42,522 nucleotides of DNA from Desulfohalobiaceae bacterium. Lineage in GTDB: Bacteria; Desulfobacterota; Desulfovibrionia; Desulfovibrionales; Desulfothermaceae. This document shows, piece by piece, positions 13,524-27,953 of this stretch. The stretch lies in the NCBI GenBank assembly GCA_021737085.1, contig JAIPEP010000006.1, forward strand, positions 1 through 42,522, read 5' to 3'. The number at the start of each line of letters is the position of its first letter. The stretch's first letter is position 1. The notes beneath the pieces are model-generated. The model had not been told where the DNA came from. It saw only the letters and a list, made by a program, of their open reading frames with translations, and did no database searches. The position numbers and the translations under genes are program-made.

Positions 13524-13621
13524 ATAACCCACATGCCTGGACAGACGCAGGCACAACCAAACATGAAAACGACCGGAGCCTATCCAATTTTATTAAGCAA
13601 TTCAGTAGGTTCGAGACATTT
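13524..13621 (-). repeat. dispersed ~100-bp repeat, copy B
   Basis: The minus strand matches the plus strand of 27812-27914 over almost its whole length (shared blocks AAATGTCTC, CTACTGAATTGCTT, CCGGTC, TTGGTTGTGCCTGCGTCTG, GGGTTAT), with a few gaps near the middle. It fills most of the gap between pbp1A and the DUF945 gene. Inside is an ATG frame starting M-F-G-C-A-C-V-C, mirrored in copy A. The similarity is seen directly; its nature (mobile element, RNA or peptide gene) is unknown. Confidence 0.85.
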
Positions 13622-13653
13622 ACATACAAAAAAACCTAAAAACTATTGCGCAG

Positions 13654-22883: not shown

Positions 22884-24314
22884 ATGAACGCCAGTCTGTT
22901 CCGAGACACAGGGCAAGGCTACTTTGAAATGGCCCCGGAGCGCAGCATGCGGGTGCCGGTGCGGCTCTTCGGCAGCAGGGAGATCCTGCTGGACATGGGA
23001 CCCGAAGTCTTGCAGCAGGCGGCAAATGTGGCCTACCTTCCCGGAATTCGGGAAGCCTCTCTGATGATGCCGGACGCCCACTGGGGCTATGGCTTCCCCA
23101 TCGGCGGCGTGGCCGCCTTCGACCCGGATCAGGGCGGAGTCATCTCTGTGGGCGGCATCGGGTACGACATCGCCTGCGGCGTGCGGGCCATGCGAACAGG
23201 AATGGAGCGCAGTGCTTTGCAGGGCAGACTGCAGGAGCTGATCGACGCCCTGTACGCGAGCGTGCCCGCGGGCCTCGGCTCCGAGGGTAGGATCAAGCTG
23301 AGCGCCTCCAAGTTGGACCGGCTTCTGGAAAAGGGTGCCGCCTGGGCTGTGGAAAAGGGTTACGGCGAGGAGGCGGATCTAAACTTCATCGAGGACCGGG
23401 GACAAATGGGCGGAGCTGATCCGGACAAGGTTTCGGAGACCGCAAAGAAGAGGCAGAAGCGCCAGCTCGGCACTCTGGGCTCGGGGAACCACTATCTGGA
23501 AATCCAATACGTGGACCGTGTCTACGATGAGGAGGCAGCCGCGGCCTTCGGCCTGTTCCCAGAAGAAGTCCTGGTTACCATACACAGCGGTTCCCGCGGC
23601 CTGGGTCACCAGATAGGCACCGACTACGTTCACCACCTGAGCCGGGCGGTAGCAAGGCACAATCTTTCCCTCCCCGCAAGGGAGCTCGTATGTGCCCCCA
23701 TCCGCTCCAGCGAGGGGGAGGATTTTTTCCGGGCCATGTGCTGCGGGGTTAACTCCGCCCTGGCCAACAGGCAGGTCCTGGGGCATCTGGCCCGGGAGGC
23801 CTTCACCCGGGTAATTCCCCAGGCCCGGCTCGACCTCGTCTACGACGTAAGCCACAACACTTGCAAGATCGAGGACCACGAGGTGGACGGCCAAAGCACG
23901 CGCCTCTACGTCCATCGCAAGGGCGCCACCCGGGCCTTCGGCCCGGAAAGCGCAGATATACCGGAGGCATATCGCGGCACGGGACAGCCGGTAATCATCG
24001 GGGGAAGCATGGGCACCAGCTCCTATATCCTGGCCGGGAACAGCGCAGAACAGAACATGGCCTGGGGTTCGGCTTGCCACGGAGCAGGCAGGGCCATGAG
24101 CCGGAGGAAGGCCACCAAGACCTGGACGGCCAAGGAGGTGATCGGCGACATGTCCCGGCAGGGAATCCTGATTAAGGCGGCGAGCAAGAAAGGGGCGGCA
24201 GAGGAGGCCCCCATGGCGTATAAGGATGTCAATCTGGTGGTGGAAGCCACGCAAAAAGCCGGGCTGGCCAGAAAGGTGGCCCGGATGAGGCCCCTTGCCT
24301 GCATCAAGGGCTAG
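22884..24314 (+). CDS. rtcB: RNA-splicing ligase RtcB
   Basis: RtcB joins RNA ends carrying 2',3'-cyclic phosphate (or 3'-phosphate) to 5'-OH ends using GTP and Mn2+. The 476-residue protein has PDAHWGYGFPIGGV (63-76), metal ligands Asp95 and Cys98 (GYDIACGVR), His203 (GSGNHYLE), His234 (HSGSRGLG), and His324 (DVSHN). The guanylated His399 lies in ACHGAGRAMSR. All key residues are present. AGGAG lies 10 bases before the ATG. No rtcA, archease or rtcR regulator is next to it, so it may act in general RNA repair. It is the last plus-strand gene before a repeat-rich gap convergent with metG. Confidence 0.95.
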   Translation: MNASLFRDTGQGYFEMAPERSMRVPVRLFGSREILLDMGPEVLQQAANVAYLPGIREASLMMPDAHWGYGFPIGGVAAFDPDQGGVISVGGIGYDIACGVRAMRTGMERSALQGRLQELIDALYASVPAGLGSEGRIKLSASKLDRLLEKGAAWAVEKGYGEEADLNFIEDRGQMGGADPDKVSETAKKRQKRQLGTLGSGNHYLEIQYVDRVYDEEAAAAFGLFPEEVLVTIHSGSRGLGHQIGTDYVHHLSRAVARHNLSLPARELVCAPIRSSEGEDFFRAMCCGVNSALANRQVLGHLAREAFTRVIPQARLDLVYDVSHNTCKIEDHEVDGQSTRLYVHRKGATRAFGPESADIPEAYRGTGQPVIIGGSMGTSSYILAGNSAEQNMAWGSACHGAGRAMSRRKATKTWTAKEVIGDMSRQGILIKAASKKGAAEEAPMAYKDVNLVVEATQKAGLARKVARMRPLACIKG

Positions 24315-24320
24315 CAGGGC

Positions 24321-24390
24321 GTTCTGCGTTCCCCGTTCTGCGTTCCCCGTTCCGCGTTCCGCGTTCACCGTTCACCGTTCCGCGTTCACC
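24321..24390. repeat. tandem heptamer repeat, ten units
   Basis: Ten consecutive 7-base units of the form GTTCNNC (GTTCTGC, GTTCCCC, GTTCCGC, GTTCACC) begin 6 bases after the rtcB stop. The period is exact and the variation is confined to the middle positions. There are no stable spacers, so it is not a CRISPR. Confidence 0.9.
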
Positions 24391-27762: not shown

Positions 27763-27811
27763 GCTTATCCCGCTTCGCCGGGGCACTCGCCTCCCGGCGT
27801 ATTTTATATGA

Positions 27812-27914
27812 AAATGTCTCCAAGCTACTGAATTGCTTGATAAAACAGGAAAGGAGCCTATCCGGTCATTGTCATGCTTGGTTGTGCCTGCGTCTGCGCA
27901 GACATGAGGGTTAT
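27812..27914 (+). repeat. dispersed ~100-bp repeat, copy A
   Basis: The plus strand matches the minus strand of 13524-13621. It lies between alaS and ricT, pointing against their transcription. From ATG at about 27873 the plus strand reads M-L-G-C-A-C-V-C-A-D-M-R-V-I and stays open for 27 codons, with a possible GGAG about 15 bases upstream. The GTCTGCGCAGAC palindrome lies inside. Confidence 0.85.
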
Positions 27915-27953
27915 AGGTAAAAAACGACCAACCCCGGATCCTTTAGAAGGACC

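What the first reader, a model, noticed from the sequence alone, without database searches (positions are those of the whole stretch)
27812..27914. Two copies of a ~100-bp repeat, each holding a possible Cys-rich micropeptide frame (copy A; copy B at 13524-13621)
The two intergenic copies, in opposite orientation and 14 kb apart, match over nearly their full length. Both contain an ATG frame beginning M-(L/F)-G-C-A-C-V-C-x-x-M-x-V-I, with one TGC/TGT silent change among the differences. It may be a small mobile repeat, a structured RNA, or a family of tiny Cys-rich peptides. The frame conservation could simply reflect recent copying.
Basis: partly seen in the sequence, partly recalled or inferred. 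Interest (0 to 1): 0.65.

Follow-up and report, generated by a model that had tools for sequence, protein, structure and literature searches.

The report
Miniature transposons of an RNA-guided transposase
The two repeats are short, gene-less copies of a mobile element that occurs about 60 times in this genome; their ends match those of an insertion sequence whose transposase belongs to the RNA-guided IS110 family, so they are probably moved by such an enzyme, and they do not encode a cysteine-rich peptide.

Summary
The two copies align at 81% over 113 bases (E 2.6e-25) and belong to a family of about 60 dispersed copies in this genome. Most copies with both ends are 321-368 bp; copies A and B are short, internally deleted forms with different breakpoints. 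The peptide reading fails: the "Cys" stretch is a terminal hairpin (CCTGCG/CGCAGG in some copies, CCCGGG/CCCGGG in others), the frame has no common end, and some copies lose the ATG or gain stops.

The same hairpin-bearing end, subterminal inverted repeats and TT|RTATG-type junctions bound one insertion sequence in each of two related genomes, around a 419-aa IS110-family (DEDD) transposase. Downstream of that gene lies a structured RNA with two segments that match the element's own left and right junctions, IS by IS. This is the layout of IS1111/IS110 seek (bridge) RNAs. Best reading: MITE-like, non-autonomous relatives of this IS clade, mobilised in trans.

Not shown: transposition itself; no cognate transposase or RNA was found in this 89%-complete genome. 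Long copies also carry a conserved ~165-nt module, in either orientation, of unknown function.

The parts
27802..27805 (+). T-run at the left edge of copy A (2-8 T in other copies); left half of the TT|RTATG junction
27806..27912 (+). Copy A: short (internally deleted) form of the repeat unit, ATATG ... GAGGGTT; keeps the left palindrome arm
27806..27816 (+). Terminal motif RTATGNAAATG, one subterminal inverted-repeat arm
27867..27877 (+). CATTGTCATGC, the other subterminal inverted-repeat arm (pairs with RTATGNAAATG)
27886..27903 (+). Terminal hairpin GCCTGCG-TCTG-CGCAGAC (with one C.A mismatch); the codons of the supposed Cys-rich peptide
27913..27917 (+). Right flank ATAGG, matching the family's preferred RTAKG flank
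13526..13627 (-). Copy B: short form of the repeat unit with a different deletion breakpoint (keeps the right palindrome arm)
13535..13552 (-). Terminal hairpin of copy B
13561..13571 (-). Inner arm of the subterminal inverted repeat of copy B
13617..13627 (-). Terminal arm of the subterminal inverted repeat of copy B (GTATGTAAATG on the minus strand)
13628..13634 (-). T-run at the left edge of copy B (A's on the plus strand)

Best explanation
The repeats are non-autonomous, MITE-like elements related to a clade of IS110-family (IS1111-like) insertion sequences. In copy A's orientation the unit is [RTATG ... CATTTTCATGC-TTSGTTGT-hairpin-ATGAGGGTT]. The related IS has the same ends (on the opposite strand: AACCC-hairpin-CACAACnAAGCATGAAAA ... 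TTTTCATAY) around a 419-aa DEDD transposase gene and a downstream structured RNA. Inferred mechanism: a transposase-RNA complex supplied in trans recognises both junctions by base pairing, mobilises the unit, and joins it without target duplication to sites of the form TT|RTATG. Long copies carry a palindrome-bounded module; loss of most of it produced short forms such as copies A and B. Shown here: copy number, shared ends, IS association, RNA-junction matches, presence/absence at one locus. Inferred: transposition in trans and the exact point of strand exchange.
For: About 60 copies with shared ends in this genome. No target duplication and conserved junctions. Copy A is absent from the orthologous gap in G001. 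Near-identical ~95-bp copies in different flanks in G004. IS110-family gene with the same hairpin end upstream and the T-run end downstream in both G003 and G004, and the same plan in L254 and L257. RNA-guided IS110 transposase by NCBIfam, IS621 by PDB sequence. Downstream structured RNA with covarying stems whose two variable segments match each IS's own junctions better than any other assignment (2 of 120 and 2 of 720 permutations reach it).
Against: Neither the 419-aa type transposase nor its RNA was found in this genome or in G001; the assembly is 89% complete, G001 53%. The left extension beyond the inverted repeat is ~38 bp, not the 7 bp of typical IS1111 elements. About 20 copies lack the T-run end. 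No clean empty site was obtained. No experiment.
Confidence: 0.73

Rival explanations
1. The hairpin is a pre-existing REP-like target, and the IS and its MITEs inserted into it at RTATG|CTTSGTTGTGCC, as IS621 does in E. coli REPs or IS1111 does in Coxiella QMITE2.
For: A GCACAACnAA segment in the IS RNA resembles the hairpin-side sequence GCACAACGAAG; IS1111 elements usually extend only 7 bp beyond the left inverted repeat; G004 holds hairpins joined to other sequence; REP targeting is known for IS621 and IS1111.
Against: Hairpins that travel with the G004 ~95-bp copies are homogeneous and differ from the other G004 hairpins; no unoccupied hairpin was seen in this genome; guide segment 1 matches the outer edge of the hairpin unit.
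Confidence: 0.15
2. IS200/IS605 or RAYT/REP-type element: single-strand transposition by a Y1 (HUH) transposase acting in trans.
For: Terminal hairpin, an internal segment that pairs with the end and with the preferred flank, no target duplication.
Against: No Y1 transposase in this genome or G001; none of the fetched Y1 loci of relatives carries the repeat ends within the ~1.5 kb fetched on each side, whereas IS110 genes of G003 and G004 do.
Confidence: 0.05
3. Retroelement (target-primed copying), suggested by copies that lack one end.
For: About 20 copies keep the hairpin end but lack the T-run end, with varied breakpoints, against two of the reverse kind.
Against: The reverse transcriptase gene is not co-distributed with the repeat; hairpin-end copies were the search criterion in part, so the asymmetry is inflated; the truncated copies lack the T-run expected at the target.
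Confidence: 0.03
4. Cys-rich micropeptide family.
For: An ATG frame is present in most copies, with one silent change between copies A and B.
Against: Hairpin-preserving changes break the Cys pattern; no common stop or C-terminus; lost starts and in-frame stops in some copies.
Confidence: 0.02

Closest known systems
IS1111 group of the IS110 family and its seekRNA (ISEc11, ISPa11, ISKpn4; PMC11187229)
   Same: DEDD transposase, subterminal inverted repeats, long noncoding region downstream of the transposase gene with segments matching the junction or target, no target duplication
   Different: Left extension ~38 bp with a hairpin instead of 7 bp; transposase 419 aa instead of 330-350 aa; the repeats in the window lack the transposase and any recognisable seekRNA
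IS621 and bridge RNA (IS110 group; PMC11208160)
   Same: RNA-guided DEDD recombinase family; RNA with two loops that read target and donor; sequence similarity of the transposase to IS621
   Different: RNA lies downstream, not upstream, of the gene; inverted repeats are longer; target is TT|RTATG-like, not a REP
Coxiella QMITE2 (PMC5896051)
   Same: Short intergenic MITE in tens of copies, with a palindrome, associated with an IS1111 element
   Different: QMITE2 has 7-11 nt direct repeats and is described as a target of IS1111, not as sharing its ends
REP/REPIN and IS200/IS605-derived miniature elements
   Same: Dispersed terminal hairpin, intergenic, no transposase gene
   Different: No linked Y1 transposase; ends shared with an IS110-family element instead

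Membership tests
MITE-like non-autonomous derivative of an IS | Many dispersed copies, no transposase gene | tested here: met
   about 60 sites, units 103-368 bp
MITE-like non-autonomous derivative of an IS | Termini shared with an autonomous IS | tested here: met
   same hairpin end, inverted repeats and junctions around the IS110-family gene in G003 and G004; the IS is not found in the same genome as copies A and B
MITE-like non-autonomous derivative of an IS | Mobilised in trans | not testable with these tools
   needs a transposition assay
IS110 family (the partner IS) | DEDD_Tnp_IS110 and Transposase_20 domains | tested here: met
IS1111 group (the partner IS) | Subterminal inverted repeats | tested here: met
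   GCATGAAAA ... TTTTTTCAT; CATGAGAATG ... CATTCTCAT
IS1111 group (the partner IS) | Noncoding region downstream of the gene, with segments matching the junctions | tested here: met
IS1111 group (the partner IS) | Terminal extensions of 7 bp (left) and 3 bp (right) | tested here: not met
   about 38 bp left extension if the hairpin belongs to the IS
IS1111 group (the partner IS) | Transposase of 330-350 aa | tested here: not met
   419 aa
IS200/IS605 or RAYT/REP element | Y1 transposase gene bounded by the same ends | tested here: not met
HEARO / IscB omega-RNA element | Match to Rfam HEARO, or an RRXRR protein gene | tested here: not met
   no Rfam match; no RRXRR hit in 11 genomes, though the control genomes did not ring either
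Cys-rich micropeptide family | Conserved start, stop and amino-acid pattern across copies | tested here: not met

The most novel reading that the evidence does not exclude
The long copies are RNA-carrying parasites of an RNA-guided transposase: the conserved ~165-nt inner module (GGTTTCATCCC ... TATATGAARCCCAGC), held at 161-169 nt and found in both orientations relative to the ends, is itself a guide or regulatory RNA of a new type.
Probability: 0.17. Interest if true: 0.8.

Novelty: new variant of a known kind. Interest (0 to 1): 0.5.

Why it matters
IS110-family transposases are guided by RNA and are being developed as DNA-writing tools. In the papers held I found none combining bridge RNA, IS110 and MITEs or non-autonomous elements. 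If the reading holds, this family offers dozens of natural, minimal donor ends and many natural target sites for one clade, so that end and target requirements could be read from sequence and tested with very short donors. It also points to an IS110 clade with an unusual hairpin-bearing left end.

Tried and rejected
Rfam scans of long copies on both strands: nothing convincing. Pattern scans of genome contigs and viral contigs with an inner motif: no hits. IscB (RRXRR), Y1 and TnpB zinc-ribbon searches: none in this genome. Reverse transcriptase: not co-distributed. Target-site duplication: rejected, because left and right RTATG motifs do not agree copy by copy. The genome's other IS110 gene (335 aa, L251): its flanking sequence shows no hit to the repeat ends. 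Search for the IS RNA inside long repeats and across this genome: nothing. A consensus fold of the inner module beyond its terminal stem has little covariation support. G-U versus A-C counts did not settle a transcribed strand.

Full report
Check of the observation. Copies A and B align in opposite orientation at 81% identity (E 2.6e-25). Both fill much of a ~165-bp gap between genes. A genome-wide BLAST with copy A gave 42 matches, one with a long copy gave 64 matching pieces, and a covariance model of the hairpin end (R1) gave 62 sites. The host assembly is 2.36 Mb in 178 contigs and 89% complete.

Anatomy. In the orientation of copy A a full copy reads: T-run, RTATGNAAATG, an AT-rich stretch, one arm of a 23-bp palindrome (GGAGCCTATCCGGGGAGAGCGC), an inner module, the other arm, CATTTTCATGC, TTSGTTGT, a hairpin, ATGAGGGTT, then a flank that prefers RTAKG. 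Of 60 sites with the hairpin end in fetched loci, 34 have a recognisable other end: 19 of these are 321-368 bp, 14 are 103-147 bp and one is 304 bp. Copies A and B are short forms with different breakpoints. Copy A keeps the left palindrome arm, like L004 and L002/L079; copy B keeps the right arm, like L011 and L074+. Because each breakpoint recurs at several loci, the short forms were probably mobile themselves (inference).

Peptide. The putative CACVC is the hairpin. Across 41 aligned ends 88.9% of cells pair, and two stem positions exchange C-G for U-A or G-C for C-G in about 40% of copies. These are mostly two linked haplotypes, so they represent few independent events. The exchange turns CACVC into CARVS or CARVG. 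Starts, stops and downstream residues are not conserved.

Spread. R1 finds the end in the same-genus relative G001 (32 sites), in G003 (55), G004 (43), G009 (4) and G005 (1), and in no other of the 61 genomes searched. A G003 contig equals, in length and in the transposase match, a record titled uncultured Desulfohalobiaceae (L253), so the family f1 is probably Desulfohalobiaceae (inference). In G001 the locus orthologous to copy A has both neighbouring genes but no element, as expected for a lineage-specific insertion; the rest of the gap is too diverged to define the empty site. In G004, near-identical ~95-bp copies, some in head-to-tail arrays, lie in different flanks, and the flanks diverge immediately outside T-run|GTATG and GGGTTTGT.

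Partner. Among the transposase and polymerase families searched, IS110 (PF01548) gave the link. In G003 and G004 a 419-aa IS110-family gene starts 85 and 75 bp after the hairpin end, and the matching T-run end follows the gene. The two proteins are 63% identical, score as IS110 family RNA-guided transposases, and match IS621 by sequence in the PDB. Homologs from other deltaproteobacterial MAGs show the same plan in L254 and L257; L256 has the inverted repeats but no clear hairpin, and L255 is cut on the left.

Guide RNA. A few tens of bases downstream of the gene is a conserved noncoding region that folds into two domains; four predicted pairs change on both sides (six sequences). One variable segment matches each IS's left junction including flank (ATGTTAAC in G003, TACAAAC in G004, TGAGTAAC in L254; weaker, 5-6 bases, in L256 and L257). 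Another matches the right junction (ATGTTAA, CATACAAA, ATACAAAT, CATATGAA and others). Own pairings are the best of all permutations, tied only through two similar ISs (2 of 120 and 2 of 720). This is the organisation described for seekRNA and bridge RNA (PMC11187229, PMC11208160). The segments were picked by eye from the alignment before the permutation test, so the test measures specificity among ISs, not discovery. The G004 guides (GGTACAAACG, GCATACAAAAA) would also suit the CATAY-AAC and CATAY-AAA junctions of this genome.

Mechanism and limits. The likeliest mechanism is transposition in trans by such a transposase-RNA complex; movement of cargo between IS ends with transposase and RNA supplied in trans is reported for ISEc11 (PMC11187229). 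In this genome neither that transposase nor that RNA was found, so the partner is missing from the assembly, lost, or diverged. The boundary is also inferred. A rival places the hairpin in the target, like a REP; it is weakened by the homogeneity of hairpins that travel with the G004 copies and by guide 1 matching the outer edge, but it is not excluded.

Unexplained. Long copies contain a ~165-nt module (GGTTTCATCCC ... TATATGAARCCCAGC; 161-169 nt) that occurs in one orientation in family A and in the opposite one in copies from G001 and in L177 of this genome. Its terminal stem is conserved, but covariation inside is weak, and it matches no Rfam family. It may be a passenger, a nested element or an RNA gene.

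Noticed in passing
L177 1202 (-), L085 1579, L118 282, L166 1582, L208 1095 versus L064 1583, L026 1263: The ~165-nt inner module of long copies occurs in both orientations relative to the element ends, at nearly constant length (161-169 nt), with conserved termini GGTTTCATCCC and TATATGAARCCCAGC.
   Followed up: partly
L065, L066, L067, L069, L070, L071, L032, L033, L074 (-), L078, L029, L080: A dozen copies keep the hairpin end but lack the T-run end, with varied breakpoints; only two of the reverse kind (L038, L041) were seen. The cause of the asymmetry is open, and part of it may be search bias.
   Followed up: partly
G004: L082, L114, L092: Head-to-tail arrays of the ~95-bp short element at ~90-bp period, each unit joined to the next at GGGTT|TGTATG.
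   Followed up: partly
L251 1492-2496 and L250 (G000 C38, G001 C62): A second IS110-family gene (335 aa) shared by this genome and its same-genus relative; no hit to the repeat ends in its flanks.
   Followed up: partly
window 24320-24389: Short tandem array of a 14-bp unit (CGTTCTGCGTTCCC and variants) just after the end of the ORF at 22884-24314.
   Followed up: no
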